A program made the position numbers and the translations under genes. Below, piece by piece: positions 1-49,015 of a stretch of DNA of 49,333 nt. Where the stretch lies: the IMG/VR virus record IMGVR_UViG_3300046530_000200, positions 1 through 49,333 of that record; one strand, given 5' to 3'. The stretch comes from a virus. Numbering within the stretch: position 1 is the stretch's first letter; the number at the start of each line of letters is the position of its first letter. Below the pieces are notes generated by a model. The model did no database searches, was not told the DNA's origin, and worked only from the letters and a program-made list of their open reading frames with translations.

Positions 1-465
1 CCATTGATCCCGATCCGATGCTACCGTCACCGGAATCGACACCGCATCACGCATCGCCTTCACACAATCGGCCACCAACTGCGGATGCCCCATCAGGCAC
101 GCACCGATCATATTGTTCTGCACTCGATCACTCGGGCAGCCGACGTTCAGGTTTACCTCGTCGTAGCCGTGGTCCTGGGCCATGCGGGCACAGGCGGCCA
201 GGTCCAGTGGGACACTGCCGCCGAGTTGCAGGGCGAGCGGATGCTCGGCTTCGTTGTGACGCAAGAAACGGTCGTGGTCGCCGTTGAGCAGCGCGCCGGT
301 GGTGACCATTTCGGTGTAGAGCAGTGCGTGCTTGGAGAGCAGTCGCAGGAAGAAACGGCAGTGGCGGTCGGTCCAGTCCATCATCGGCGCCACGCTAAAG
401 CGGCGAGACGGCTCGGAACGGGTATGGCTAGAGTTTACGGGCGCTTCAGCTTTTTCGAAGTTCAT
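1..465 (-). CDS. dusA: tRNA-dihydrouridine(20/20a) synthase DusA, 5' part, runs off the left edge
   Basis: DusA reduces uridine to dihydrouridine in the D-loop of tRNAs, using FMN and NADPH. Reading leftward from the ATG at 465-463, the protein shows the DusA-type N-terminus: [17 protein letters not shown] near residues 25-41, then [16 protein letters not shown], and [12 protein letters not shown], which carries the catalytic cysteine. The first 20 or so residues ([13 protein letters not shown]...) lie outside the attachment core and are therefore supplied by the prophage. Near positions 22-24 two bases seem to be missing: the expected VKHRIGI motif reads VASDRD in frame but returns in the next frame. 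This is either a real frameshift that kills the gene or a sequence error at the edge. The family assignment is secure; functionality is not. Confidence 0.93.
377..408. other. attL, prophage left attachment site inside dusA
   Basis: This stretch encodes the conserved [11 protein letters not shown] segment of dusA and matches 47136-47167 at 26 of 32 bases. The longest identical run is TCCATCATCGG (377-387). The integrase lies about 190 bases away. Integration at the 5' end of dusA by dedicated tyrosine recombinases is a known pattern. I infer that crossover took place within this imperfect core. Confidence 0.85.
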
Positions 466-1737: not shown

Positions 1738-2649
1738 ATGGAATTGAAAATTGTATGGTGGAATACTGGGATGTCTCCGCCGACGACGAGAAAAATAAAG
1801 GATAAGAGAGGTTCTGAAGGGCTCACAACTGTATTGCGGCACCTACTGATTGATGATGGGGTTGATTTGTTAGGGCTGTGTGAGGTCGCGCCTTTGGAAA
1901 TATCAGTTATTGATGCTTTGTTGGGGGATTGTGGGCTAGAAGATTATAAAGTTCAGTCTCTGTATAATTCTGTTGGTAATAGCGTTAATGATTTTTGTAT
2001 TGTGTTTAATGATAAAAAGTTGAAGTATTTGGATCATCAGTTTGTAAATCGACGCGACGAAAATCGAGTGTTCTATAAAGCCGGGGTTAAAGTAAGGCTT
2101 GTTGCCTGCGAGGGAACGGTTTTTAATGTTTATCTTTCTCACTGGCAGAGCAGACGCTCGATGCATGATAAACCCCATAGGGCTGGATTGGGTAGCACTT
2201 TAAGAGATTCTATAAATTCGGTGTTTCAGGCTACGGGGGAAAATTCCCATGTCATTTTAATGGGCGATTTTAACGATGATCCATATGAAGACTCGATGAC
2301 TCACCACCTGAAGGCAACGCGTGATAAAAATTTTGTTCTGGCGAATAAGCGTGTCCTGTATAACCCCTTTTGGAGAGAGATGGGAGCTTTGATTCCATAT
2401 GTGCATACTGATAGGTCCGTATGGGATTACCCTTACGGTACCTGTTATTACAAGAATCATAGCGAGATGACCTTCTGGAAAACTTTCGATCAAATATTGT
2501 TTTCCTCATCGTTCTTTGGTAAGAATAATTGGCATCTGTCGGAAGGAGCGACTAAAATATATTCTCTAGTTGAGTTTGGTCGCTACTTTGAGGATTGGAG
2601 CAAGGTGTCTGATCATTTGCCGGTTTCAACAAAGGTTATGAGGGTCTGA
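1738..2649 (+). CDS. Endonuclease/exonuclease/phosphatase (EEP) superfamily protein
   Basis: This 303-residue protein has the complete EEP catalytic signature: N9 in WWNTG, E49 in LLGLCEV, H135 in LSHWQSRR, D177 and N179 in MGDFNDD, and D292-H293 in SDHLPV. The fold covers Mg-dependent DNases such as DNase I and ExoIII as well as phosphodiesterases. I can call metal-dependent phosphoesterase or nuclease activity, but not the substrate. There is no signal peptide, so it is probably cytoplasmic. The gene is AT-rich compared with the phage backbone, which suggests cargo picked up by transfer. It is followed after one base by 2651-3538, so the two genes are almost certainly co-transcribed and probably act together. 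A role in phage exclusion is possible but is inference. Confidence 0.85.
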   Translation: MELKIVWWNTGMSPPTTRKIKDKRGSEGLTTVLRHLLIDDGVDLLGLCEVAPLEISVIDALLGDCGLEDYKVQSLYNSVGNSVNDFCIVFNDKKLKYLDHQFVNRRDENRVFYKAGVKVRLVACEGTVFNVYLSHWQSRRSMHDKPHRAGLGSTLRDSINSVFQATGENSHVILMGDFNDDPYEDSMTHHLKATRDKNFVLANKRVLYNPFWREMGALIPYVHTDRSVWDYPYGTCYYKNHSEMTFWKTFDQILFSSSFFGKNNWHLSEGATKIYSLVEFGRYFEDWSKVSDHLPVSTKVMRV

Positions 2650-2650
2650 T

Positions 2651-3538
2651 ATGTTCGATTTTGTTGGGGCATTCAAGCGAGGCGTTAAGGCGGCAAAGGA
2701 TCTTAATAAGCACCAACTTGAAGTTGAAGAGGTTTTTCATGAGTTGTCAAGAAAGTTTCTGATTGCGACGGATGGTGAATTTGAAATAGTGCGTTCTAGT
2801 TCATTTGCATCAGGGGTTTCGGCAGCGTTAGAAGTTTTGAGTGGTGCTCCTCTAAACTCGCAGACTCAAACTGGTGGGTCAATACTCATACGGTCCAGAA
2901 GCAATGCTAATTTAAGTGCGAAAATTGCCAATTGGATTAAACATCCAAAAGGTTTTACTTTTGTACTCCACTTTGAGCAGCGAGAGATTATTTCGAAGAG
3001 TCAGGCGGAGTTGGGCGCTGCATTAGAAGAGCTTTTGAGCGCTCCAGTTGTAGGAAAGGCTTATTTGAATCTTCTGAGTTCACTTAAAAATAGTCGTAAA
3101 GAAAAAGAAGAAGTTGTCCAAAACCGTCCATTGAGAGTGACAAAAGAGGCGGCTACTTTGGCCGTAGCGAAACCTGTTGTTGTCAAGGTAGCGGCGAAGC
3201 ATGCAGCGAAACCTGCTGCGGCCAAGGCAGCTGCGAAGTCGGCAGCGGCCAGGGCTGCGGCAAAGCCTGCAGCGAAATCTGCTGCGGCCAAGGCAGCTGC
3301 GAAGCCGGCAGCGGCCAGGACTGCGGCAAAGCCTGTAGCGAAACCTGCAGCGGCAAAGCCCGCGGCGAAACCTGCATCAGTCAAGGCGCCTAAGCCAGCG
3401 GCGGCACATGTAGCGAAACCTGCGGTGCCCAAGCAATCCGATGCTCCAAATGCTGATGCGTTGGGTGACGGTGTGAATGAAATGACGCCCGGAACCTCTC
3501 AACGTGTGCTCAGTCCAGGTGCGAGTCCCACAAACTAA
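2651..3538 (+). CDS. Partner of the EEP protein, with a Lys/Ala/Pro-rich histone-H1-like tail
   Basis: This 295-residue protein is not recognised. Residues 1 to about 160 form a compact, mostly helical N-domain (MFDFVGAFKRGVKAAKDL...) with no motif I know. Residues about 165-265 are a low-complexity basic tail of repeated AAKPAAAK and AAKSAAAR units, like histone H1 or the Pseudomonas AlgP tail, and are expected to bind DNA non-specifically. The last 30 residues lose the repeat. The tail region is GC-rich while the N-domain is AT-rich, so the gene may be a domain fusion. With the EEP gene one base upstream, a plausible but unproven idea is that this protein brings the nuclease to DNA or restrains it. 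Confidence 0.7.
   Translation: MFDFVGAFKRGVKAAKDLNKHQLEVEEVFHELSRKFLIATDGEFEIVRSSSFASGVSAALEVLSGAPLNSQTQTGGSILIRSRSNANLSAKIANWIKHPKGFTFVLHFEQREIISKSQAELGAALEELLSAPVVGKAYLNLLSSLKNSRKEKEEVVQNRPLRVTKEAATLAVAKPVVVKVAAKHAAKPAAAKAAAKSAAARAAAKPAAKSAAAKAAAKPAAARTAAKPVAKPAAAKPAAKPASVKAPKPAAAHVAKPAVPKQSDAPNADALGDGVNEMTPGTSQRVLSPGASPTN
3203..3334 (+). repeat. Two tandem 66-bp repeat units in the basic-tail coding region
   Basis: The unit starting at 3203 (GCAGCGAAACCTGCTGCGG...) recurs at 3269 with only a few substitutions, and a degenerate third part follows. Each unit is 22 codons, so gain or loss of a unit would change tail length without shifting the frame. Confidence 0.85.
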
Positions 3539-3562: not shown

Positions 3563-3594
3563 ATAAATAATGGGGCCAAAGCCCCATTATTTAT
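3563..3594. terminator. Bidirectional intrinsic terminator between convergent genes
   Basis: A perfect 14-bp stem (ATAAATAATGGGGC with its complement) closes a CAAA loop. The A/T-rich ends of the stem give U-runs in both directions. It lies between the end of the plus-strand cargo pair (3538) and the stop codon of the leftward early operon (3591), and so can end both transcripts. Confidence 0.85.
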
Positions 3595-5472: not shown

Positions 5473-6063
5473 TCAAACGGCGTGCGCAGCAGGCGTTGCT
5501 GCAACAGCTAAGTGGTTGATGGACTCGGTGACCTTGCCGTAGATCTCGACATCGGTGCCGCACACGGTGAAGCACTTGGTGTGTGGGCTCTTTACGCCGA
5601 TGCTGAGAATGGTGGTGACGCCTGGGCGTGTGTGGGTGCGGTGCACCGCGACGTGCAGGGGGACGTCGAAGCCCATATCGAGACTCAGTACGCCGCCGGT
5701 GCGCACCAACTCGAGCACGCGTTGTTTGTCCTGGACTTCAAACCGACCGTATTCGCGACTTGCGTGAGAAAGTTGCACCTGGTCGCTGGTGTTGCTCGGG
5801 TCGAACGGACCGTTGGCAATTTCTTCGATGAAGTCGGCCAGCTTGAGATGCATCTTCTTGCCGTTTTTCAAGGTCAGCGTGTGGCGTTCACTGCCCAGTT
5901 CGACGACGAAAATGGTCTCCGATGTGCCACGTTCAACCTTGAGACGGAACGCCAAGGATTCACGTTTGGGGGTCGACCTCAAGACGTGATTGAAGGTCTC
6001 GGTCAGGTTGGCCTGGGCATTGAGCAACTGCAGGGTGCGGTTGTCGAGTTTGAACTTTCTCAT
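5473..6063 (-). CDS. Hypothetical phage early protein, 196 residues
   Basis: Not recognised as a named family. The protein (MRKFKLDNRTLQLLNAQ...) is mixed alpha/beta with many Thr, Val and His residues, including VPLHVAVHRTHTRPG in the C-terminal half, and has no membrane segment. The start at 6063 is preceded by GGAGGG, and its ATG overlaps the TGA of the upstream small gene. It is the largest gene of the leftward early operon, and expression should depend on the operator-covered promoter near 6273-6301. Confidence 0.65.
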   Translation of the reverse strand: MRKFKLDNRTLQLLNAQANLTETFNHVLRSTPKRESLAFRLKVERGTSETIFVVELGSERHTLTLKNGKKMHLKLADFIEEIANGPFDPSNTSDQVQLSHASREYGRFEVQDKQRVLELVRTGGVLSLDMGFDVPLHVAVHRTHTRPGVTTILSIGVKSPHTKCFTVCGTDVEIYGKVTESINHLAVAATPAAHAV

Positions 6064-6236
6064 GCTGCGTGCCCTCCGCCGTTCGGGTCGAAAGGGGCGG
6101 GGGCTGTACGGGCTTTCTGCTTCGGTTTGGTGGTGACAAACGAGCAGCCGCATTCGCGGGCCAAGCGGCGTATTTCGAAGATGCGGAACGGGTCAGCAGC
6201 GGCCGGATGGACGTGCAGGGTGGCTGTGGCGTGCAT
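6060..6236 (-). CDS. Small phage early protein, 58 residues, first gene of the leftward operon
   Basis: The frame starts MHATATLHVHPAAADPFRIF and continues EIRRLARECGCSFVTTKPK, ending at a TGA that overlaps the next ATG (ATGA at 6063-6060). It is a soluble protein with a short helix and two adjacent cysteines separated by one residue. No function can be given. It is the first gene after the operator-controlled leftward promoter, with its start about 37 bases from the -10 element, so it heads the transcript that includes the KilAC-like and PrtN-like genes. Confidence 0.65.
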   Translation of the reverse strand: MHATATLHVHPAAADPFRIFEIRRLARECGCSFVTTKPKQKARTAPAPFDPNGGGHAA

Positions 6237-6272
6237 GGTATTGCCTCGCTCTGTGGTGGAAGAGTGAGGTCA

Positions 6273-6337
6273 AATATCAATCATTGGTTGCGATAAATCA
6301 ACTATTGGTTGATATATGAGGCTGACCTGAAAATATT
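6273..6337. promoter_or_regulatory. Left operator region with divergent promoters and two repressor operators
   Basis: Two 17-bp operators fit ATCAAC-N5-GTTGAT: a perfect one at 6297-6313 (centre TATTG) and a weaker one at 6276-6292. Their starts are 21 bp apart, so they lie on one DNA face. A leftward promoter reads TTGATT (-35, 6301-6296) and GATATT (-10, 6278-6273) with 17-bp spacing; both boxes overlap operators. A rightward promoter for the gene at 6406 may use TTGATA (6309-6314) and AATATT (6332-6337). The same half-sites occur beside the repressor gene, so repressor control of both directions is a strong inference. Confidence 0.75.
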
Positions 6338-6405
6338 TTTCCCGTTGGGCGGTCAAAAGCTATCCTTCAGGAACCCGTTTGTAGATATCCACCGGAGCGT
6401 TCTGT

Positions 6406-7440
6406 ATGGGATGGCCAGGCGAGCAGTTGCTCGGGAAAATGTGGGACACGCTTGCTGATAGAGGGATCGGAGGATGGCTTAAGCCTGGTCAGATCAGACG
6501 GGAAGCCTTAGCCAATATCGAGATGGAAAGGGCGAAGATATTAGCCAATGCTCAAGCCCAACGAGATGCTGAAGATATAAAGGAAGGGCGGAAGTCAATT
6601 TCCGACTTTTCAACAACTATCGACTTCAAAAAGGCCGTATTGTCCAATGACAGATCATTGCGCATAGAGCCGTCGTTGGATTACCAGTTGGCTTATGACG
6701 TGGGTCGCGATCGATTAATTCATGATTCTGTTCGTCAAGAGGTGAACGTTGCCAAGGCAATAATTCATGCGGAAGAAACTCTTCGGAATGATGCGGATCC
6801 CGCCCCGGAAGAAATTATTGATGAGGATTGGCTGTACAGGTGGCGAGACTACACCGGTGAAGTCTCAAATGATGATCTGCAGAAAATTTGGGGAAGGCTT
6901 CTGGCTGGTGAGGTCAAGGCACCAGGTTCTTACTCGTTAAGGTGTCTCGATTTTTTAAGAAATTTATCTCAGGCTGAAGCAAAGTTGATAGAGCAGCTGT
7001 CAAGTTTGGTATTCATGTCTGCGGTTTGGCGTCCGGATGACACAGCTTACAAGTTGCCAGTGTCATTTAAGGAGATTCTCGAGTTACAGGAAATCGGAAT
7101 TGTTTCAGGTGCTGAGGCGATGGGACTTACTATTCAGTTTTTTGACGACAGTCCAGATCACTCGCAGTTTTGGAAGGCCTTGATTTGCCACGATAAGTGT
7201 CTAATAGTCAATCATGTCAATAAAGCTTCAAGGCTGTCTCTGAAAGTCTATGCTGTAACCAAGTTAGGGCTTCAACTCATGACTTTGGGTCAGTTTAAGG
7301 CTGATAATTCGTATTTGGAGGCTCTGGGGAAACACATCATTTCGCAAGGTTATGAGGTGTCTGTAGCTGATGTTGTTGAAGATGGTGAAGGTTATATTAA
7401 GTGGGCAAATGAGCGAAAGTTGGCTGTTACTCAGGAGTGA
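6406..7440 (+). CDS. DUF2806 domain-containing protein
   Basis: This 344-residue protein has the DUF2806 pattern: an N-terminal helical part rich in Ala, Glu and Arg (about 25-65), then DEDWLYRWRDYTGEVSNDDLQ and IWGRLLAGEVKAPGSYS (about 135-170) and a C-terminal domain from about 190. There is no signal peptide or membrane segment. The biochemical role of the family is unknown. GGAG lies 9 bases before the ATG. It is transcribed divergently from the leftward early operon, with a promoter that overlaps a repressor operator, and its end overlaps the end of the repressor gene. That position suits a lysogeny-associated gene, possibly exclusion. Its codon use is more AT-rich than the late genes. 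Confidence 0.75.
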   Translation: MGWPGEQLLGKMWDTLADRGIGGWLKPGQIRREALANIEMERAKILANAQAQRDAEDIKEGRKSISDFSTTIDFKKAVLSNDRSLRIEPSLDYQLAYDVGRDRLIHDSVRQEVNVAKAIIHAEETLRNDADPAPEEIIDEDWLYRWRDYTGEVSNDDLQKIWGRLLAGEVKAPGSYSLRCLDFLRNLSQAEAKLIEQLSSLVFMSAVWRPDDTAYKLPVSFKEILELQEIGIVSGAEAMGLTIQFFDDSPDHSQFWKALICHDKCLIVNHVNKASRLSLKVYAVTKLGLQLMTLGQFKADNSYLEALGKHIISQGYEVSVADVVEDGEGYIKWANERKLAVTQE

Positions 7441-17817: not shown

Positions 17818-18968
17818 GCAAGAAGGCGCGACCGCGCATTTACAACCGGGCCGGCCAGCAGGTCCAGGTGCAGGACAAAACCTGGTACGCCCTGCAATCC
17901 AGCGGCGAGGCCGCCGAGCGAGTGATCGAGGTGTTCGTCTACGGCGAGATCGGTGCCTGGGGCATTACTGCCAATCAGTTCGTTCAGGACCTGCGCGCCA
18001 TGGACGATGGCGTCTCGCAGGTGATCGCGGCGTTCAACAGCATCGGCGGCGACTTGTTTGACGGGTTGGCCATGCACAACGCGCTGTCACGTCTGGGCGA
18101 ACGCTGCACTGGGCGGATTGATGCACTGGCCGCCAGTGCGGCCAGCGTCGCGGTGTGCGGCGCGCACAAAGTTGTCATCGCAGCCAATGCCATGCTGATG
18201 ATTCACAACCCATGGACCTATGCGGCCGGAGACGCCGAAGACTTCCGCAAGGTGGCGGACGTGCTTGACCAGACCATGGAGGCGATCATCGCGGCCTACA
18301 AGGCGAAGGCGCCGGACATCGATGAGGTCGAGTTGCGGCGGCTGGTTGCTGCTGAGACTTGGCTCACGGCCAACGAAGCCGTGGCCTTGGGCCTGGCCGA
18401 TGAAGTCGGCGACGGGATCAAGGTCAAGGCCTGCCTCGGCCAGGGTGGTGTGCTCCAGCGTTACCAGCATGCACCGGCCGAACTGCTGGCCCAGCTCGGT
18501 GAACCACCCGAGCCGGATCCGGAATTAGTACCTGACGATCCGCCTCTGACGCCGTCGGTGGTCGATGCGGCCAAATTGGCGCTGATGATCACCCAGCGAT
18601 GCGCCGAGGCAGGCATCAGCAACCTGGTTGCACCGCTGCTCAGCTCGACCAAACTCGAAAGCGAGGAGATTGTTCAGACGGGGCTGACACGCGCCAAGAC
18701 GGTGAATGACCTGTGTGTGGCCGCTCGCTTGCCGGAGTTCAGTGCCGAGTTCGTCGCGGCCGGTCTGGATGCGGCGGCGGTTCGGGCGCGTCTGTTCGAC
18801 AAGATCGTCGGCAGTGGCAAGGGCTTTGAAATCGACAACAGCCTGCCGCTGGCCGAAGACCCACCGCCAAAGGTGCAGGCCAAGCAAATCGATCAACCCT
18901 CTATCTGGTCGGCACGCCAAGCCGCGCGCACCACTAAACCCCAATCTGCTACAGGAGCAAGACGATGA
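17814..18968 (+). CDS. Prohead protease (ClpP/S49-like, lambda gpC type) with C-terminal extension
   Basis: This 384-residue protein has a ClpP-like serine protease domain in residues 1 to about 215. The likely nucleophile is S108 in ALAASAASVAV and the histidine is H131 in LMIHNPW. LTANEAVALGLADEVG near 184 is typical of the family. The remaining 170 residues are helical and would act as a scaffold, as in lambda C and Nu3. It processes head proteins during capsid assembly. It overlaps the portal and decoration genes by four bases each, indicating coupled translation. Confidence 0.92.
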   Translation: MSKKARPRIYNRAGQQVQVQDKTWYALQSSGEAAERVIEVFVYGEIGAWGITANQFVQDLRAMDDGVSQVIAAFNSIGGDLFDGLAMHNALSRLGERCTGRIDALAASAASVAVCGAHKVVIAANAMLMIHNPWTYAAGDAEDFRKVADVLDQTMEAIIAAYKAKAPDIDEVELRRLVAAETWLTANEAVALGLADEVGDGIKVKACLGQGGVLQRYQHAPAELLAQLGEPPEPDPELVPDDPPLTPSVVDAAKLALMITQRCAEAGISNLVAPLLSSTKLESEEIVQTGLTRAKTVNDLCVAARLPEFSAEFVAAGLDAAAVRARLFDKIVGSGKGFEIDNSLPLAEDPPPKVQAKQIDQPSIWSARQAARTTKPQSATGARR

Positions 18969-37429: not shown

Positions 37430-39220
37430 ATGAATTTACCGCCTTTCAATAGGATGATTTCGATGACCTCAAGCGCCCGCTCCTTCCGAGACCTCGTTAC
37501 AGATGCACATGACGGAAAATTAAAGCTTCCTGCATTTCAGAGAGGCTGGCGTTGGAGGACCGACAAAGTAATCAAACTGTTCGATTCCCTTCGGCAGGGA
37601 TACCCTATTGGTGCCCTATTATTTCTGAAAGGAGAAAATGAGTTGCTCGCGCCGAGAACCTTTGAAGGTGCCTGCGTTCAAGCCCCGGATAAGGCTGCCG
37701 ATTTTCTTGTATTAGATGGCCAGCAGCGGCTTACTGCTGGCATTCATCTTTTGTACGCCACTGGACCGAGACAATATTATCTTCGACTGGATCGCCTCTT
37801 TGAGCTTTGCTGTTCAAAAAAAATTAATTTCGAAATAAAAGAAGAAGTAATTCAATTTGTTCATGATCTTGATGAAACTGATAGTTATATCTCTGCTAGA
37901 CCACGCACAGTCGACCCACGCTCGCAATTAGTAAAGAAACACTTACTATGCACGTCCTTGCTAGCAGACTCCACGGAATTAAATTTGGCAATCCTTGATT
38001 ATGTTGCAGAATATTCTGATCGAAGGGACTTTGCCTATCGCCTAATCGTGCCATTTTTCAGCCTGGCTAAAACTGACACAGTTCCAGTAATTGAGATCGA
38101 AGCCACTACCCAAATTGAATCTATTAGCCGAATATTTACAACCTTAAACACCACGGGGCAAATGCTTACACCTTTCGAGCTTGTAGTGTCGATCCTATTT
38201 CCTAAAGATATTGATCTTACTCAGGAGATCAAGGACTTTCGAGAGAAAGGCAAATACTATGAAAGCATGGATGGGACTGGAGAAATCCTTCTGCAAACAA
38301 TTGCCATGCTCGGCGGAAAGGAGCCTAAAAAGGCAAACTTGCCAAAAACAATAAACGCAGAACTCTACACAGCTTATAAAGAGTCAGCATTTCAGTCGCT
38401 TGAGACATTAGGAAAGTTTCTAACTGATAATCTCGGCGCAGCACTAGATTCCAAAGGTGTAGATATGGTTCCCTATGACGCCATCTACGCACCAATGGCG
38501 CTAGCCTTAAAAGAAATTAACGGCCGAAACCTCAAGGGTTTAGATAAGTTAAATGCAGAAAAGAAGCTAGCACGATGGTATGTTGGTTCTGCGCTATCTC
38601 AAAGATATCAAGAGGGCGTCCATAACAAGCAAGTTCGCGACTACGAAGATTTCAAACTTTGGCTTGATAATGACTCATCTGTTCCTTCCTGGGTGACCGA
38701 AGTTACGATACCGCGACTTTTACGTCACTCACCTAACGGAGCTATTGGAAAACTGATCCGAGGGCTGATCAACTATCGAAACCCTAAAGATCCAGTTTCA
38801 TCCAACGGCATCGGTTTTCGCCCAGGCGCTTTCCCCACGGAAAAGCATCATATTTTCCCCAAAAAATACCTTCCGACAATATCTGGTTGGAATAAGGGAG
38901 ATCAGGGTGACGTCATACTAAACCTTATGTTTTTAGAGTCTGAAACAAATAGGCGATGGATCAATGGAAATCCTGCGGATCATGTACAAGAAGCATCAAA
39001 TAATCATGGAGATGCAATAGTCGCTGAAAATTATAGACTTCAATTTATCGAAAGCACCGCTTTCGAAGTCCTCAAAAAGCCTTCAAAATCGAAAGAGGAT
39101 TTTGAAGAGTTCGTCCTACTTCGTGAAAAATCAATGCAAGACCATATAGCAGCGTCCTTCAACTTCACGATGGCTGGAGTTGAAGAGATAGATGATGAGG
39201 AAGACGAGCCAGAGGACTGA
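37430..39220 (+). CDS. DUF262 and HNH nuclease protein, GmrSD-like
   Basis: This 596-residue protein has an N-terminal DUF262 (ParB-like) domain with LPAFQRGWRW (34-42) and the NTP-binding signature VLDGQQRLTA (94-103). A C-terminal DUF1524-like His-Me finger has HHIFPKKYL (about 473-481), the GmrD active-site pattern. Fused DUF262-DUF1524 proteins include the type IV restriction enzyme GmrSD, which cuts modified phage DNA. The gene is AT-rich and stands alone on the plus strand. The start is uncertain: ATGs at 37430, 37454 and 37463 are all possible. An anti-phage function is likely by family; the target is unknown. Confidence 0.85.
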   Translation: MNLPPFNRMISMTSSARSFRDLVTDAHDGKLKLPAFQRGWRWRTDKVIKLFDSLRQGYPIGALLFLKGENELLAPRTFEGACVQAPDKAADFLVLDGQQRLTAGIHLLYATGPRQYYLRLDRLFELCCSKKINFEIKEEVIQFVHDLDETDSYISARPRTVDPRSQLVKKHLLCTSLLADSTELNLAILDYVAEYSDRRDFAYRLIVPFFSLAKTDTVPVIEIEATTQIESISRIFTTLNTTGQMLTPFELVVSILFPKDIDLTQEIKDFREKGKYYESMDGTGEILLQTIAMLGGKEPKKANLPKTINAELYTAYKESAFQSLETLGKFLTDNLGAALDSKGVDMVPYDAIYAPMALALKEINGRNLKGLDKLNAEKKLARWYVGSALSQRYQEGVHNKQVRDYEDFKLWLDNDSSVPSWVTEVTIPRLLRHSPNGAIGKLIRGLINYRNPKDPVSSNGIGFRPGAFPTEKHHIFPKKYLPTISGWNKGDQGDVILNLMFLESETNRRWINGNPADHVQEASNNHGDAIVAENYRLQFIESTAFEVLKKPSKSKEDFEEFVLLREKSMQDHIAASFNFTMAGVEEIDDEEDEPED

Positions 39221-41001: not shown

Positions 41002-42657
41002 ATGAAGCACAGTACTGGAAATAAAAAAAACGAGCATATTCCCGAAAAAAAACGAAGCGTTTATAACTTGTTTGATACAGGCGCGAAAGACTGGGGGGAA
41101 GTAAAAGCCCAGGTAAAAACAGAGCTTGAAAAAATCGGAGAGGGCCGAGTTGCAGATTGGTTGGCAACCTTTGACCAATCATTTGGCGACTTTTCTAAAA
41201 GCGTAGTGCTGGATTCATCACGTAAAGTCTTGCAAGGATTTCGTAGTGGTAATTCGCGCCCTCCTTATGAACCGCACCTATTTGAATCGTTGTTGAAGGG
41301 GTGTGGCTCTCTATTGGACAGATGTCTTGCAAATAAAAGAGATCTTGCTGAGATGGAAGTGGCGGGTATTAAAGTAGCGCTGGACTACCTAAGCTATCGA
41401 AAGCTTCGTCCGATCTCTGACGAATTGGAAAGTTGCGTGTTACAAGATGAACGTGCGCACAAAATGCGGGAATCGATGGAGGAGGCGGCACGTGTATTTG
41501 CTGGCGGCGCAGCAGCATCTGATCATGTTGCGTTGGGATTACGCGAACAGGCGTTGGGAAGTGCGGAAGATTACCAGAAATTAAATGTTCTTGAAGCCCG
41601 TCGAAGAGTTTTATTGAAATACAAAAGTGATATTTCTGACGACGCCCAAACTGCCATGTTTACACGCTACCTGGCTCCAGGTGGAGTGCAGAACTTTGCC
41701 GAGCGTCATATCAGAATACGTAAGTTGTTTAAAGAGGATCTCGATGAAGCATTTCGAAAAATATACTCAGTGTGCGTTGGAATCAGGCAGTGCTTTAAAG
41801 TTGTGAAACTCGATGGATACCCCCTTGATGTGCCGCTATTCGAAAGCCATGCGGATATCGGCGGTTGGTGTCAACAGCAGGCAAGTTGGATTGATTTAGT
41901 AGCTCCTGATATATTGGATGCACTCGTATTGTGGACGAGAAGAGCAATGCGTGAGCTGGAGCGGATCATTCAGTATGAAACTGAAGATACGATCGTCTTG
42001 CCACTTAATCAGTACTGGTTGCTTGGTTTGGATGCTGCTACCCCCAATCAACCACTAACGACCGACTTCATTCGTCACTCAATGAATAAAGATGGGATTT
42101 TGGAGTTCTATCTTAATTCTGGTCTTATGCCTTTTTATGATAGCTACAGAACAGTTCGGGTGCTTGGGGTAGGTATTTCGGTATCCGGATACGAACACAT
42201 ACTAACCCCATTTGCCTATCACCAAGACTTGGCAGGGGAGTGGCCGATCGAGCCAAAAACAGAGGTAGACTTTAATGCTAGAAAGGTTAATGTCGAAAAA
42301 GCGGCAAAACTCAGCGCAATGGAAATCAACAAGAAGTTCAATGCCATGATTTGGTTCCCAAATCTGATGATCGGAGAACTGTTTACATACGAAAGGCTGC
42401 CAATGGCGTGTAGTAGTGTTGGTTATGAGCAAGGTGATAATGAAGTAAATATAAAATGTGATCCTATGTGTCGCAACGTCAATCCGTTTGAGGGTATGTG
42501 GAAAATTCAAATCGATAGCAGAGCGCTTCTATATTTTGGGTGGGATCACGGTGACGCTCACAGCCCTCCTTCCGAATTGTCGCTGACGAGAAATAGCATC
42601 AATGGATTATTTCTGCATCTACGACTCAGAATGCTTCCAAAGGGGATATCCCTTTGA
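41002..42657 (+). CDS. Unrecognised 551-residue protein, first gene of an orphan operon
   Basis: Not recognised. The protein is soluble, with a basic N-terminus (MKHSTGNKKNEHIPEKKRS), a long helical region (about 30-320) rich in charged residues, and a C-terminal part (about 340-551) that is more beta-like, with FYDSYRTVRVLGVGISVSGYE near 375 and PFEGMWKIQIDSRALLYFGW near 497. I see no catalytic motif. GGAGG precedes the ATG. Its stop overlaps the TTG start of the next gene. The gene is AT-rich compared with the phage backbone. The large size, tight pairing with a hydrophobic partner and position in a defence-like island suggest toxin, exclusion or defence roles; nothing proves this. Confidence 0.6.
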   Translation: MKHSTGNKKNEHIPEKKRSVYNLFDTGAKDWGEVKAQVKTELEKIGEGRVADWLATFDQSFGDFSKSVVLDSSRKVLQGFRSGNSRPPYEPHLFESLLKGCGSLLDRCLANKRDLAEMEVAGIKVALDYLSYRKLRPISDELESCVLQDERAHKMRESMEEAARVFAGGAAASDHVALGLREQALGSAEDYQKLNVLEARRRVLLKYKSDISDDAQTAMFTRYLAPGGVQNFAERHIRIRKLFKEDLDEAFRKIYSVCVGIRQCFKVVKLDGYPLDVPLFESHADIGGWCQQQASWIDLVAPDILDALVLWTRRAMRELERIIQYETEDTIVLPLNQYWLLGLDAATPNQPLTTDFIRHSMNKDGILEFYLNSGLMPFYDSYRTVRVLGVGISVSGYEHILTPFAYHQDLAGEWPIEPKTEVDFNARKVNVEKAAKLSAMEINKKFNAMIWFPNLMIGELFTYERLPMACSSVGYEQGDNEVNIKCDPMCRNVNPFEGMWKIQIDSRALLYFGWDHGDAHSPPSELSLTRNSINGLFLHLRLRMLPKGISL

Positions 42658-43415
42658 GTGCCCGGACTGCTAAGCCTGGCCAGAAAGGAAACAGGCTTTC
42701 TTCTGAAGAGGCCGCGCAATGCGGAATATCGACAGTTTCAGACCCGTTGTCTGCCAGAGGTTATTTTGAAAGTGGAGGAATTGCCCTGGCGGGTTCATAC
42801 ATGTCATATGTTGCCACCGCACCTATTTTGGCTGCCGAAGCAACCGCTATGGGGGCCGCGGGCGCTGCTATAGGCGCAACTGCACTCATGATTGGCGGTG
42901 CTGCAGCTTTGTCAATGATAGTAATGGGAGGGGTTGTTCTGACTACAGGCAAGAGCCCGCTGACTAATGATCAAAAAGCACAGTTTGAAGCGATAACAAA
43001 TCTCTACGGACAATTAGCTTTTACGATTTCTGCTTTTATTACGTCGAAGTATGACAATGCAATTTTTGCTGCTAAAACAACTAAAGCTGTCACGGATATT
43101 TTCAAGTTTTCAAGTTCGGGGGGCGCACTAATTGACAAAGGTATGGCTACTAATGCGCTGGACTTCTTATTGAACTTAAAAGACGCTCAAGAAGGAGTAG
43201 GTTATCTCGGTACAGACTTCAGAAAGGATTTTGATAAGCTTTTAGCTGAATCTGATTTTATGTCACTTTTTGAGAGTTCCAGACCGACATCGACAGAAGG
43301 TTCATTTCCTGATAGGTCAGATCTTGGAGGCCGAATAAGGGATGCAGGTGTGGGGGACGCTGAAGGAGACGATGGAGGAGAAAGTAGCGGGGAAACCGAT
43401 GATGGATGGTTTTGA
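42654..43415 (+). CDS. Unrecognised 253-residue protein with hydrophobic segments (TTG start)
   Basis: Not recognised. After a basic, polar start, residues about 50-100 are a long Ala/Gly-rich hydrophobic stretch (MSYVATAPILAAEATAMGAA and LMIGGAAALSMIVMGGVVLTT) that could form two membrane helices or a hairpin, as in pore-forming proteins. The C-terminus (about 215-253) is acidic and Gly-rich (GDAEGDDGGESSGETDD). AGGGG lies 9 bases before the TTG at 42654, which overlaps the TGA of the 551-residue gene (TTGA), so translation is coupled. A membrane-acting effector with a cytoplasmic partner is one reading. Confidence 0.6.
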   Translation: MSARTAKPGQKGNRLSSEEAAQCGISTVSDPLSARGYFESGGIALAGSYMSYVATAPILAAEATAMGAAGAAIGATALMIGGAAALSMIVMGGVVLTTGKSPLTNDQKAQFEAITNLYGQLAFTISAFITSKYDNAIFAAKTTKAVTDIFKFSSSGGALIDKGMATNALDFLLNLKDAQEGVGYLGTDFRKDFDKLLAESDFMSLFESSRPTSTEGSFPDRSDLGGRIRDAGVGDAEGDDGGESSGETDDGWF

Positions 43416-43438: not shown

Positions 43439-43770
43439 GGCCGATAGCTGCCTGTGAGGTGAACCAGACTCGTTCCCCGAATCTACCTCGACATGACTGG
43501 CGACGGGCCTTGGGTATCGATTAATCGATGTCCAGTTTTTTCAATCGAGCCAGGCCTTGTTTGATATGGCCAGCGTTTTCAGCCATGGTCCACAGTGCGC
43601 CACGGACATTTTCACCCACTTCCCGTGCCCCTTGCTCCTCAACCAGCAGTGTCAATTCCATAATGGCCGCCTCCAGGGCTTGCTGGTTTTCGTACAGCCT
43701 CTCCAGTACATCTGGCAATGAATAATCGCTTGGCATTGTGTCGATTCCTTTCGAGAAAGCCCAGCATAGC
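43439..43770. repeat. Direct repeat copy A (partner 46681-47012)
   Basis: About 330 bases here match 46681-47012 at clearly more than 80 percent by eye, starting at GGCCGATAGCT and covering the 71-residue gene and its leader. Together the two copies flank the segment that carries two HEPN-type genes. Confidence 0.85.
43521..43736 (-). CDS. Small conserved helical protein, copy A
   Basis: This 71-residue protein (MPSDYSLPDVLERLYENQQA...) is fully helical with heptad-like leucines, ALEAAIMELTLLVEEQG and HIKQGLARLKKLDID. A paralogue lies at 46768-46983 with about ten differences. The stop codon sits in the centre of a perfect palindrome (ATCGATTAATCGAT). The gene lies inside a direct repeat of about 330 bases. 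Function is unknown; the fact that two copies are maintained with mostly conservative changes suggests that it is translated. Confidence 0.72.
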   Translation of the reverse strand: MPSDYSLPDVLERLYENQQALEAAIMELTLLVEEQGAREVGENVRGALWTMAENAGHIKQGLARLKKLDID

Positions 43771-45244: not shown

Positions 45245-46477
45245 CTACTTCCTGCCGCCCAACAACAACTCATCCCAAAAACTGGACGTCAACTCTCCGC
45301 CTCGAAAAATTACTTCCTTAATTGCACGCGCACATAATGGCAAACCTTCCTTGAGGGCAGTTTCCGCTCGCGCAGCATCCTTTGCTTTTTTTGATAGTTT
45401 CCCCGAGTGTGCAGCAGAAGATCGGCAGCTATATAAATCGCGCAGCAGAGAGTAAATATACTTGCGCTCAGTAAAATCCCGCCCTAATAGCCAAGCACCG
45501 CGGAGCCGAAGCGTTAACGAAATCTGGGCCGTATCATCAAGCTCTGCAAGTAACAATGACTCCATCGCTACGCCAAGGTCAATTGCTCGATCCACCAAGC
45601 TGTCGTGACGGACAGCTTCATTGAGGCGATGAATCGGTACCTCAAGTTTTTCTCGCTGTGCCTTAGGCAATGCGAAGTAGGTGGTGAGCGTTCGTTTAAA
45701 ATCTTCCAACTCATCTAAAGTGGCGTCATACACTTGACCAATACCAGCTTCTTGGTATTTAGATTCCCAATTGCGAGCAGTGACTCCATAAAGAAAGGCG
45801 CCTTCTTGTAGTTCCGAATAGCTGCGGCGATTAATGACGATAGACGGTGAGATTATCGTCAGTAATTCCGAGATGTGCTTTAGATAATTAACCTCATCAG
45901 TATCAAAAGTTTGCCATGCTGCATCACCAGGGTGAAAAAATTTTGGCCGCACGTTTGTAAGACGGAACAACACCGAATCAGGGCTTCCTACCGAAGGCGT
46001 GTAATCCACCGGCAGCGTCGGCGACATGAAATCAAAAGCCGCCTGCCTTTCCGCATACTCTTTCAAAAAAAGCTTTAAAGTTGTTGATGGAACTGAATCT
46101 GGGCTTGCAATGAAAACATCATCTAGCAGCTTAAATGTACAAGGAACTTTTAAGCCGCGCAACAAAACAACTTCGATACAAGGGTTGTAGTCTTGCTCGA
46201 TATATTCAAATAAGGCATCAACTGATCTCTCGACTCCTTCATCTAATGCCCTGCGAACCAGTGCCTCCCCGACACTAGATAAACTCAGCGTGGATCGCAT
46301 ATTCCCAAGATTCAAAATTTTTCCGTCACCTTCCTTTAGATTAGGGAGGTCCGACAACATTGCTTTATACGTGTCCGGTACAATAAATCGCTCACTTTCA
46401 CCCGGGAAGCTAAATCTAAGATCCTCATTCAGCCCCGCTCTGACCACTTCTACAATTAGATCACGTAACGTAGACAT
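45245..46477 (-). CDS. ApeA-like HEPN domain protein, 410 residues
   Basis: The C-terminal third has SLLRDLYSCRSSAAHSGKL, with R352-x4-H357 as the HEPN catalytic motif in the context typical of ApeA-like HEPN domains (R-S-x-x-x-H-x-G). The large N-terminal part (about 1-280) has no motif I know, but includes SYSELQEGAFLYGVTARNWE near 222. ApeA-type proteins act in abortive infection, cutting RNA when phage is sensed. The gene is AT-rich, transcribed leftward from 46477, and flanked by the direct repeats. A defence role is likely but inferred. Confidence 0.72.
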   Translation of the reverse strand: MSTLRDLIVEVVRAGLNEDLRFSFPGESERFIVPDTYKAMLSDLPNLKEGDGKILNLGNMRSTLSLSSVGEALVRRALDEGVERSVDALFEYIEQDYNPCIEVVLLRGLKVPCTFKLLDDVFIASPDSVPSTTLKLFLKEYAERQAAFDFMSPTLPVDYTPSVGSPDSVLFRLTNVRPKFFHPGDAAWQTFDTDEVNYLKHISELLTIISPSIVINRRSYSELQEGAFLYGVTARNWESKYQEAGIGQVYDATLDELEDFKRTLTTYFALPKAQREKLEVPIHRLNEAVRHDSLVDRAIDLGVAMESLLLAELDDTAQISLTLRLRGAWLLGRDFTERKYIYSLLRDLYSCRSSAAHSGKLSKKAKDAARAETALKEGLPLCARAIKEVIFRGGELTSSFWDELLLGGRK

Positions 46478-46680: not shown

Positions 46681-47012
46681 GGCCGATAGCTCCCCGTGAG
46701 GTGAACCGGACTCGTTCCCCGAATCTACCTCGATATCACTGTTGACTGGCCTTTTGTGTGCGATCGGTTAACCGATGTCCAATTTCTTCAATCGCGCCAG
46801 GCCTTGTTTGATATGGCCGGCGTTTTCACCCATGGTCCACAGTGCGCCACGGACATTTCCGCCCACTTCCTGCGCCCCTTGCTCCTCAACGAGGAGGGTC
46901 AGCTCCATAATGGCTGCCTGCAGAGCCTGCTGGTTTTCGTACAGCCTTTCCAGTACATCCGATAACGAATAATCACTCGGCATGACCTCGACTCCTTTCA
47001 AGAAAAAACACA
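46681..47012. repeat. Direct repeat copy B (partner 43439-43770)
   Basis: This copy carries the second 71-residue gene and lies about 120 bases from the right attachment site. It differs from copy A by scattered substitutions and a few small gaps, so the duplication is not recent. Its palindrome at the gene's stop codon is ATCGGTTAACCGAT, changed relative to copy A at two symmetric positions. Confidence 0.85.
46768..46983 (-). CDS. Small conserved helical protein, copy B
   Basis: This 71-residue paralogue (MPSDYSLSDVLERLYENQQA...) matches copy A at about 63 positions and ends KLDIG rather than KLDID. Both copies keep length, start and the Leu/Ile pattern. It lies near the right attachment site, so one copy probably belonged to the original prophage end and the other arrived with, or was duplicated around, the HEPN segment. 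Confidence 0.72.
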   Translation of the reverse strand: MPSDYSLSDVLERLYENQQALQAAIMELTLLVEEQGAQEVGGNVRGALWTMGENAGHIKQGLARLKKLDIG

Positions 47013-47200: not shown

Positions 47201-47666
47201 TGGCGTTTCTGGAATGGGTGAGGCTGGGAGGTGGGGAGTTTATCAGGATTGGGCTTGGGGGGCTCAGGCGAGTCTTGCTGCGGTAGTTGAGAACGAGTGA
47301 GCACAGGAACGGGAGGGATTCCGCGAGATAGCGTGAGTAAATAAATCAGTCCACCTTTTTTGGTGCTCGATCTGCTGGAGCAGATGAATATACAACTAAC
47401 AGGGCACAAGCATGGGCCAGCGCCACCACCGGACAATGCGGGGGAATTCGCCGCGAATGCGGGTATGGCTGTGGTACTAGCAGCAAAACTCAGACCAATT
47501 ACTGGTTGAGGTGATACGCCTCTATCGATTCAAAACTGGTAATTGCAGTCACGCTCATGATAGCCAAATGCAATCGCTCTTTGGCGGGCAGCTCGCTGTT
47601 TGTTGAACTAGCTTCAATCGTACAGCCACACAAATAGTGTGCAATACTCCAGTGGACGGAAATCCT
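47201..47666. other. Host spacer: upstream region of native dusA and of the darT-like gene
   Basis: No convincing gene is seen. The left end should contain the original dusA promoter (leftward), and the right end the promoter of the ADP-ribosyltransferase pair (rightward). An open minus-strand frame ends near 47,505 without a clear start. I can identify no further feature. Confidence 0.4.
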
Positions 47667-48296
47667 ATGCCTAGGCGAGCTATTCAGGTTTATTCAACAC
47701 ATCTGGGAATTCCTAAGCTTGTTCACTTCACTAAGGCTGAAAATCTTCCGATGATCCTGAGGTATGGTCTATATCCTCTATCTCGCCTTCACGAGATTGG
47801 TGCTCGCCCGGTTGTCAATGATCAGCTCCGACTTGACGGGCACCCCGACAGTTCATCAACCTCTATTGCTTTTCCAAACTGCCAGATGTTTTATAGGTAT
47901 CGCCAAGAAAATTTAGCAACCGAATGGGTAGTCATGAGTTTCGCCCCTGAAGTTCTTTGGGATAAGAATGTCGGTTTCTGTAAGCACAATGCTGCTGACG
48001 GTCGCATTAGTGCAATCCCACAAGCTACATTGCAGGAGCCTCAATCTTTTTATGATATGTACAGCGAGATACCGGGCTTGCAAACTCGCGCACAACAAAG
48101 ACTTAGAGCTTACGATCCGACAGATGTGCAGGCAGAAGTATTGGTTTTCGATATCATCGAGCCTCGATATATCATCGCTGTAGATTTTAATAATTTGAAC
48201 ACTAGGAATACATACATTGGACAGTTAGGGGGCATCCCTGGAAGACTGTTCGGCACTAATGCAGGCTGCTTCGGTACACGTGGCTTTAATCGATAG
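47667..48296 (+). CDS. darT: DarT-family ADP-ribosyltransferase toxin (DUF4433)
   Basis: This 209-residue protein has the DarT plan: H20 in KLVHFTKAENLPMIL for NAD binding, NDQLRLDG at 51-58 with R55, SIAFPNCQMFYRYR at 66-79, and the likely catalytic E157 in DVQAEVLVFD. DarT enzymes ADP-ribosylate bases in single-stranded DNA (thymidine for the best known), and related enzymes modify guanosine. Unchecked, they block replication, and DarTG pairs defend against phage. I prefer the ATG at 47667 to the GTG at 47637. It is followed after 14 bases by a NADAR-type gene instead of a macrodomain DarG, which hints at guanosine as target. Confidence 0.88.
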   Translation: MPRRAIQVYSTHLGIPKLVHFTKAENLPMILRYGLYPLSRLHEIGARPVVNDQLRLDGHPDSSSTSIAFPNCQMFYRYRQENLATEWVVMSFAPEVLWDKNVGFCKHNAADGRISAIPQATLQEPQSFYDMYSEIPGLQTRAQQRLRAYDPTDVQAEVLVFDIIEPRYIIAVDFNNLNTRNTYIGQLGGIPGRLFGTNAGCFGTRGFNR

Positions 48297-48310: not shown

Positions 48311-49015
48311 ATGGCTTCTCGACCTGTATTCATTCCGTCAATGGATGGTCCCTTGTTAGTAAAGACGCAACACATTGACTTTCAATGGTTTCCCGGAATG
48401 GCCGTTTCTCAAAAACAGAAGTCAGTCTCTTCGCTTCATTCAATGGCGATGCAAAAACTTAATATAGACAGCATACTTGAAGTTTCAAGCAAGTCCCAAG
48501 AAAGTCTTGGTGTAGAGTTGAGTGCCTTTAACTTGCTATTCACTACATTAAAACAAGCCAGAACACTTAGTGTTGAATGTGCATTCCAGGGCAGTAAAGT
48601 TTTCGAGAGTGGAGGGCCCTACCTAGACCTGTTTGAAAAGACATCTAAGGAAGCAAAAAGGGACGAGCGTCTAAAAAATTCCGGACGCATCACAGGCTTC
48701 CGGTTTTTCGGAACCCAATGGGAGACAGAACCCCGCACTGCATTTTATGACTGGCTATATTTAAACGCCCTTAATAAAAACCCGGAACTTGCAGATAGGC
48801 TATCTGATTACTCGGCATTTACTGATATCGAGTTCAATCCTGAAAAGTCAATAAACTGCCAAGCCTACTCTATTGCTCTGTTCGCCTCTCTAAAGAAAAG
48901 AAATCTTCTCAATGAAGCACTTTCTAGTAAGGAGAGTTTTCTATTTATAATGTCAAACTACAGCATTAGTAACGCGCACCGAGATGACGCCGTTAGAAAA
49001 GGTCTTGATTTTTAA
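48311..49015 (+). CDS. NADAR-type antitoxin partner of the DarT protein
   Basis: This 234-residue protein has LSVECAFQGSKVFESGGPYL followed by EKTSKEAKRDERLK, the NADAR pattern E-x-x-x-Q-x-x-K-F and x-A-K-R that binds ADP-ribose. NADAR proteins are known to remove ADP-ribose from guanosine in nucleic acid and are found beside DarT1-like toxins. AGGAAAAGG precedes the ATG, 14 bases after the toxin stop, so both are co-expressed. It lacks the macrodomain of DarG. The C-terminal part (WLYLNALNKNPELADRLSDY) is helical. A terminator follows at 49041. Confidence 0.78.
   Translation: MASRPVFIPSMDGPLLVKTQHIDFQWFPGMAVSQKQKSVSSLHSMAMQKLNIDSILEVSSKSQESLGVELSAFNLLFTTLKQARTLSVECAFQGSKVFESGGPYLDLFEKTSKEAKRDERLKNSGRITGFRFFGTQWETEPRTAFYDWLYLNALNKNPELADRLSDYSAFTDIEFNPEKSINCQAYSIALFASLKKRNLLNEALSSKESFLFIMSNYSISNAHRDDAVRKGLDF

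What the first reader, a model, noticed from the sequence alone, without database searches (positions are those of the whole stretch)
1738..3538. EEP nuclease paired with a histone-H1-like tail protein: possible new exclusion or defence pair
All EEP catalytic residues are intact and the second gene begins one base after the first. Its unknown N-domain is joined to a basic AAKPAAAK tail that should bind DNA. The pair is AT-rich and sits beside the integrase, a common cargo position. A nuclease plus a DNA-binding partner in this setting is not a system I recognise.
Basis: partly seen in the sequence, partly recalled or inferred. Interest (0 to 1): 0.7.

Follow-up and report, generated by a model that had tools for sequence, protein, structure and literature searches.

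The report
Phage-borne EEP enzyme with obligate partner
Many prophages and small plasmids carry a pair of genes, a DNase-I-like enzyme and a small partner protein, and because the enzyme was never found without its partner while lytic phages that infect Acinetobacter carry the partner alone, the pair looks like an unrecognised toxin-and-antidote weapon against phages.

Summary
The two genes are real (1738-2649, 2651-3538) and form an undescribed, obligate two-gene module of mobile elements. The EEP has an AlphaFold model of the TDP2/DNase I/nocturnin fold, and its catalytic residues are invariant in 74 dereplicated relatives. About 90 loci with a family-level EEP all carry the partner gene next to it; about 50 generic EEPs carry none. 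Starting from the partner in about 1,190 genomes gave mostly pairs, plus one intact orphan and a few remnants.

The module sits beside integrases, in the P2 gpA-gpQ locus (a known anti-phage hotspot, reached about six times on the tree), in a filamentous Vibrio phage and on 3-kb plasmids. The histone-H1-like tail is a single late addition in a Pseudomonas clade; the ancestral partner is a ~150-aa acidic protein with no significant structural match.

The most telling result: 58 records of virulent Acinetobacter Obolenskvirus-type phages encode a stand-alone partner homologue that lacks most of the variable middle. It groups with the partners of Acinetobacter pairs (99% support) and is under purifying selection. 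I propose a toxic EEP effector held in check by its partner, and a phage-borne partner mimic as counter-defence. The toxin-inhibitor wiring is inferred and untested.

The parts
1..465 (-). 5' part of host-type dusA (tRNA-dihydrouridine synthase), the insertion site of the prophage
   Evidence: 90% identity over 148 aa to the Dus protein of L068
568..1671 (+). tyrosine integrase
   Evidence: PF00589 2.7e-18; phrog_1 8.6e-46
1738..2649 (+). EEP-fold phosphodiesterase, proposed effector; catalytic residues N9, E49, H135, D177, N179, D251, H293
   Evidence: Pfam PF19580/PF03372; AF2 model pLDDT 86, pTM 0.89; nocturnin/TDP2/DNase I fold; invariant residues; dN/dS about 0.08-0.10
2651..3130 (+). partner core domain (res 1-160): long N helix, 5 strands, C-terminal helices; proposed inhibitor of the EEP
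   Evidence: homologous gene beside every family EEP; AF2 model pLDDT 88; dN/dS 0.17-0.41
3131..3538 (+). AAKPAAAK histone-H1/PhaF-like basic tail and C-terminus (net charge +18), clade-specific addition
   Evidence: only in the window clade (L009, L010, L011, L012, L068); one origin on the tree; repeats at 3160-3434
3565..3592 (.). GC-rich hairpin at the end of the unit, terminator-like, between the pair and the convergent PrtN-like gene
   Evidence: part of a fold of -24.1 kcal/mol, z -4.5; the general terminator scan did not list it; different terminator-like hairpins at the same place in L010 and L012
3591..3860 (-). PrtN/PyocinActivator-like excisionase, convergent neighbour, not part of the module
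   Evidence: PF11112 8.9e-26; phrog_1300 excisionase

Best explanation
A mobile-element-borne two-gene conflict module. The first gene makes an EEP-fold metal-dependent phosphodiesterase, most likely a nuclease, that is harmful when free (inferred). The translationally coupled second gene makes a dedicated partner that binds it and keeps it inactive (inferred). Infection by a competing phage would disturb the complex and release the enzyme, probably through the hypervariable middle of the partner (inferred). Virulent Acinetobacter phages carry a minimal stand-alone copy of the partner with most of that middle deleted, which I read as an antitoxin-mimic counter-defence (homology and distribution shown, function inferred). 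In the window's Pseudomonas clade the partner gained a histone-like basic tail, which probably tethers the complex to DNA or RNA (inferred).
For: (1) Obligate pairing: all loci with an EEP score of 130 bits or more have the partner next door, and those below 112 bits have none (L066/L067 marginal). Median gap -1 nt, 58 of 69 within 20 nt; co-divergence, Mantel r 0.73. (2) Asymmetry: EEP never found alone; partner alone as an intact orphan (L172/L176), and as a free-standing gene in 58 virulent Acinetobacter phage records. Homology by HMM 52.8 bits, reciprocal HMM whose hits are partner ORFs only, hhalign prob 97, E 1.5e-11, and a structure match to an IME-AB2 protein of the same 115-aa length. 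Solos group with Acinetobacter partners, 99%; dN/dS 0.06-0.40. (3) Location: P2 gpA-gpQ locus in about 12 loci, six changes on the tree; that locus is a demonstrated anti-phage hotspot (PMC9122126). Also integrase-adjacent, filamentous phage, 3-kb plasmids. (4) Catalytic residues invariant. (5) Precedent: a phage-encoded antitoxin mimic against DarTG (PMC11481870).
Against: No activity, toxicity or phage-protection assay exists. The partner fold has no known relative, so inhibition is not shown by structure. Orphan partners in bacterial genomes are few and most are broken. Obolensk-type phages descend from temperate ancestors (PMC10888812), so the solo could be a domesticated relic of a lost pair. 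Neighbouring defence-gene hits have no background control.
Confidence: 0.45

Rival explanations
1. Defence nuclease with an activating or targeting subunit: the partner is needed for EEP activity or delivers it to invading DNA, and is no antitoxin. The phage solo would act as a dominant-negative decoy.
For: Same pairing and location evidence; the basic tail in the Pseudomonas clade fits DNA targeting; EEP never without partner.
Against: The ancestral partner is acidic and tail-less; an intact orphan partner exists; the solo is maintained in virulent phages.
Confidence: 0.22
2. Addiction or stabilisation module of mobile elements: an ordinary toxin-antitoxin pair that keeps plasmids and prophages in the cell, without a role against phages.
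For: Main cargo of 3-kb ColE1-type plasmids; obligate pairing.
Against: Repeated entry into the P2 anti-phage hotspot and solo copies in virulent phages are not expected of pure addiction.
Confidence: 0.13
3. Accessory DNA or RNA processing enzyme that helps the element's own replication, such as a TDP2-like removal of covalently bound replication protein. The partner is a cofactor.
For: TDP2 is among the closest folds; several carriers use HUH-type replication (P2 gpA, filamentous phage).
Against: Also present in lambda-type prophages, Mu-like elements, ColE1 plasmids and fixed chromosomal sites, and absent from most relatives of each element.
Confidence: 0.1
4. One reading: a nuclease with a histone-like DNA-binding partner acting in exclusion through DNA binding.
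For: The window protein and five relatives do carry a +18 to +43 tail.
Against: One late origin in one clade; core acidic elsewhere; about 70 relatives lack the tail.
Confidence: 0.05

Closest known systems
EEP superfamily (TDP2, nocturnin, DNase I, CCR4; Pfam PF19580/PF03372)
   Same: Fold (VIA Z about 23 over about 240 residues) and all catalytic motifs
   Different: Own 100%-supported clade with family-specific invariants (W8, W136, N209-P210, W212, Q252) and an obligate partner gene; substrate unknown
DarTG and its phage antitoxin mimic AdfB (PMC11481870)
   Same: Logic: toxic nucleic-acid enzyme, dedicated inhibitor, lytic phage carrying an inhibitor mimic
   Different: Different protein families (ADP-ribosyltransferase and its antitoxin); here nothing is tested experimentally
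P2 tin/old and other cargo of the gpA-gpQ hotspot (PMC9122126)
   Same: Same genomic position in P2-like prophages
   Different: Different protein families; the pEC904 pair has no match in the E. coli genomes searched and no EEP system is named in that paper's main text
PHROG families phrog_24714 (EEP), phrog_10179 and phrog_24185 (partner)
   Same: These already cluster the proteins
   Different: Listed as unknown function and not linked to each other

Membership tests
EEP (endonuclease/exonuclease/phosphatase) superfamily | EEP domain by profile | tested here: met
   PF19580 2.1e-16, PF03372 3.5e-8, above gathering scores
EEP (endonuclease/exonuclease/phosphatase) superfamily | catalytic Asn, Glu, His, Asp-x-Asn, Asp, His | tested here: met
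   N9, E49, H135, D177, N179, D251, H293 invariant in 74 sequences bar truncated or broken ones
EEP (endonuclease/exonuclease/phosphatase) superfamily | two-layer EEP fold | tested here: met
   AF2 model pTM 0.89; Z 23.4 to TDP2, rmsd 2.9 over 239 aa
Type II toxin-antitoxin system | adjacent co-directional genes, both proteins | tested here: met
Type II toxin-antitoxin system | first protein toxic, second neutralises it by binding | not testable with these tools
   only indirect: EEP never alone, partner sometimes alone
Type II toxin-antitoxin system | belongs to a known toxin or antitoxin family | tested here: not met
   no Pfam family for the partner; NCBIfam hits only low-complexity or sub-threshold
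Known anti-phage defence system (PADLOC-DB 2.0.0) | match to a listed defence protein model | tested here: not met
   no hit at E<=1 for either protein
Anti-phage defence system (as a function) | protects cells against phage | not testable with these tools
   location in P2 hotspot and phage-borne solo partner are indirect
Histone-H1-like DNA-binding protein | lysine/alanine/proline basic tail | tested here: met
   window clade only, +18 to +43
Histone-H1-like DNA-binding protein | basic character of the family as a whole | tested here: not met
   median partner charge -3, pI 5.3 in 70 members

The most novel reading that the evidence does not exclude
An undescribed EEP-effector immune module of prophages and small plasmids. 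A two-ended partner fold clamps the enzyme and carries a hypervariable middle as sensor. Virulent Acinetobacter phages have captured a minimal partner with most of the sensor deleted as a ready-made antidote.
Probability: 0.38. Interest if true: 0.78.

Novelty: new variant of a known kind. Interest (0 to 1): 0.6.

Why it matters
It would add an EEP effector and a partner with no known fold relative to the toxin-antidote arsenal of mobile elements, across Pseudomonas, Acinetobacter, Klebsiella, Vibrio, Burkholderia and others. It would also explain an accessory gene of unknown function shared by many virulent Acinetobacter phages, some of which are studied for therapy. Both predictions are directly testable in laboratory strains.

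Tried and rejected
Sequence search of the PDB for the partner gave chance-level hits only. Foldseek for the partner found nothing below E 0.29 in the PDB, and VIA best Z 9.3 to a Mediator subunit, a level reached by unrelated models; I do not read function from it. Partner alignments were too divergent for collection scans. Single-partner scans of viral contigs found no further solos beyond the Obolensk group, but they only reach close relatives. tblastn of L020, L058, L071 and window partners against phages gave no further solo; a weak Microcystis phage hit (E 0.2) was ignored. E. coli genomes: no match to the pEC904 pair. The upstream mini-ORF ATGGGTGATAAATGG over the EEP start is not conserved in the more distant relatives and was dropped. 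PADLOC scans of neighbours found CBASS, methyltransferase, AbiLi and other hits, but without a control set I give them little weight. Literature: none of the papers returned by my searches describes the pair as far as read; subscription journals and most bioRxiv preprints are not held, so an existing description cannot be excluded.

Full report
What is there. The window is a prophage record whose left end interrupts dusA (90% identity to a Dus protein over its first 148 aa). It continues with a tyrosine integrase (568-1671), the EEP gene (1738-2649), the second gene (2651-3538), a terminator-like hairpin (3565-3592, within a fold of -24.1 kcal/mol, z -4.5) and a convergent PrtN-like excisionase. 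The general terminator scan did not list that hairpin. One qualification: EEP and partner core are AT-rich (41-42% G+C), the tail is not (63%).

The EEP. Profile, predicted structure and catalytic residues agree. PF19580 scores 2e-16. The AF2 model (pLDDT 86, pTM 0.89) matches TDP2, neutral sphingomyelinase, DNase I and nocturnin at near-tied Z of about 22-23, so the fold does not reveal the substrate. In 74 dereplicated family members N9, E49, H135, D177, N179, D251 and H293 are invariant except in truncated or broken copies. Selection is strongly purifying (dN/dS about 0.08-0.10). Activity is therefore required for whatever the module does.

The pair is a module. Scans of IMG/VR and GTDB with the family alignment fetched 139 loci; others came from phages and plasmids. 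A six-frame HMM search split them cleanly. Every locus with an EEP score of at least 130 bits has a partner-family ORF next to it. Loci below 112 bits, mostly generic bacterial EEPs, have none, apart from two marginal cases (L066, L067). The gap is typically -1 nt, with 58 of 69 within 20 nt. The family is one side of a 100%-supported branch against partnerless EEPs, and EEP and partner distances co-vary (Mantel r 0.73, none of 2000 permutations as high). Starting instead from the partner in about 1,190 genomes drawn from the genus of G001 (Pseudomonas), the family of G002 (Pandoraea) and the order of G004 (Serratia) again mostly found an EEP beside it. The exceptions are one intact orphan partner (L172/L176), a few fragments (L163, L167, L169) and one doubtful weak hit (L170). 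No family EEP was found without a partner.

The partner. Its ancestral form is a ~150-aa protein: a 36-residue N-terminal helix, five strands and two C-terminal helices (pLDDT 88). There are conserved ends (L..G..AA.....EI..VF and GYPC.I...C.DK..LE.AL..LL..P.VG) and a middle whose length varies from 9 to 89 residues, while the N part is fixed at 39-41. No Pfam family matches and no solved fold matches significantly. It is acidic in most members (median charge -3). A DNA-binding partner is thus a local elaboration and not the principle of the system.

Where it lives. In 76 dereplicated loci the pair directly follows an integrase in 11. In about 12 it lies between P2-like gpA and the portal gene gpQ, or next to that portal and terminase. 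That cos-proximal locus holds tin and old in P2 and was shown to be a hotspot of anti-phage systems (PMC9122126). The tree needs six changes for this context, so the module entered it repeatedly. Other carriers are a filamentous Vibrio phage, 3-kb Klebsiella and E. coli plasmids, a conjugative Photobacterium plasmid and a fixed chromosomal site in Proteus (L006, L087, L089). The window prophage carries further conflict genes at its right end: a GmrSD-type protein and a DarT/NADAR pair.

The phage-borne solo partner. A structure search of viral proteins pointed to a 115-aa protein of the virulent Acinetobacter phage IME-AB2 (E 0.04, so a lead only). The matching gene is AB2_37 (18290-18637), the only annotated ORF of that length there. 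It scores 52.8 bits with the partner HMM. A profile of such phage proteins, run against 12,801 ORFs of all loci, hits partner ORFs only. hhalign gives probability 97 and E 1.5e-11 over its whole length with much of the variable middle deleted. tblastn finds it in 58 GenBank records, all of Acinetobacter phages, and none of these is among the phage records that match an EEP query (direct HMM search of IME-AB2 and of the neighbourhoods of other copies). It is an accessory gene: phages AB1 and Scipio are not among the 58, while RM_A1 and Brutus are. It is under purifying selection (dN/dS 0.06-0.40) and groups with the partners of Acinetobacter pairs with 99% support. Obolenskvirus phages are described as strictly virulent but with temperate ancestors (PMC10888812).

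Interpretation. Shown: obligate pair, conserved catalytic site, repeated insertion in cargo loci, conserved ends with a hypervariable middle, partner-alone occurrences but no EEP-alone, and maintenance of a trimmed partner in virulent phages of the same host genus. Inferred: the EEP is toxic when free, the partner restrains it, the middle of the partner senses infection, and the phage copy is an antidote. The closest logic is DarTG and its phage-encoded antitoxin mimic (PMC11481870). The main rivals are an activating or targeting partner, a pure addiction module, and a replication-helper enzyme. A relic explanation for the phage gene remains open but must account for its long maintenance without an EEP.

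Novelty. Neither protein matches PADLOC; the PHROGs that hold them are of unknown function and not linked; my literature searches found no description. The general kind, a two-gene enzyme-plus-partner module of mobile elements, is known. The families, and the combination with a phage-borne trimmed partner, appear to be new.

Noticed in passing
window 47637-48293 (+) and 48311-49012 (+): DarT-like ADP-ribosyltransferase (PF14487 1.2e-13) followed by a NADAR-DarT1 antitoxin (PF22397 3.3e-95): a DarT1-NADAR pair at the right end of the record.
   Followed up: partly
window 37430-39220 (+): AT-rich 596-aa protein with GmrSD_N/DUF262 domain (PF03235 3.2e-28; PADLOC PDC-M55C and HEC-05 matches), a likely type IV restriction-type gene.
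   Followed up: partly
window 41002-42657 and 42654-43415 (+): Two overlapping AT-rich ORFs (551 and 253 aa) without Pfam or PADLOC match, placed like a cargo operon between the GmrSD-type gene and the DarT pair.
   Followed up: no
window 43439-43758 and 46681-47005: Two copies of a ~320-nt direct repeat (86-89% identical, 3.2 kb apart) flanking a minus-strand 410-aa ORF (45245-46477).
   Followed up: no
window 6406-7440 (+): DUF2806/TIGR03899 protein (PF10987 4.8e-26) between the early genes, function unknown.
   Followed up: no
L006, L087, L089 (about 6000-7300): Proteus mirabilis and P. columbae carry the EEP pair at one fixed chromosomal site between a DUF3748 gene and the glycyl-tRNA synthetase genes.
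   Followed up: partly
L052 and L063: Two very different EEP pairs come from one IMG genome (2908021063), so one Acinetobacter cell can hold two types.
   Followed up: no
L066 5971-7416, L067 5578-7023: A more distant EEP (103-112 bits) followed 9 nt later by a 141-aa protein with only marginal similarity to the partner family: a possible sister system.
   Followed up: no
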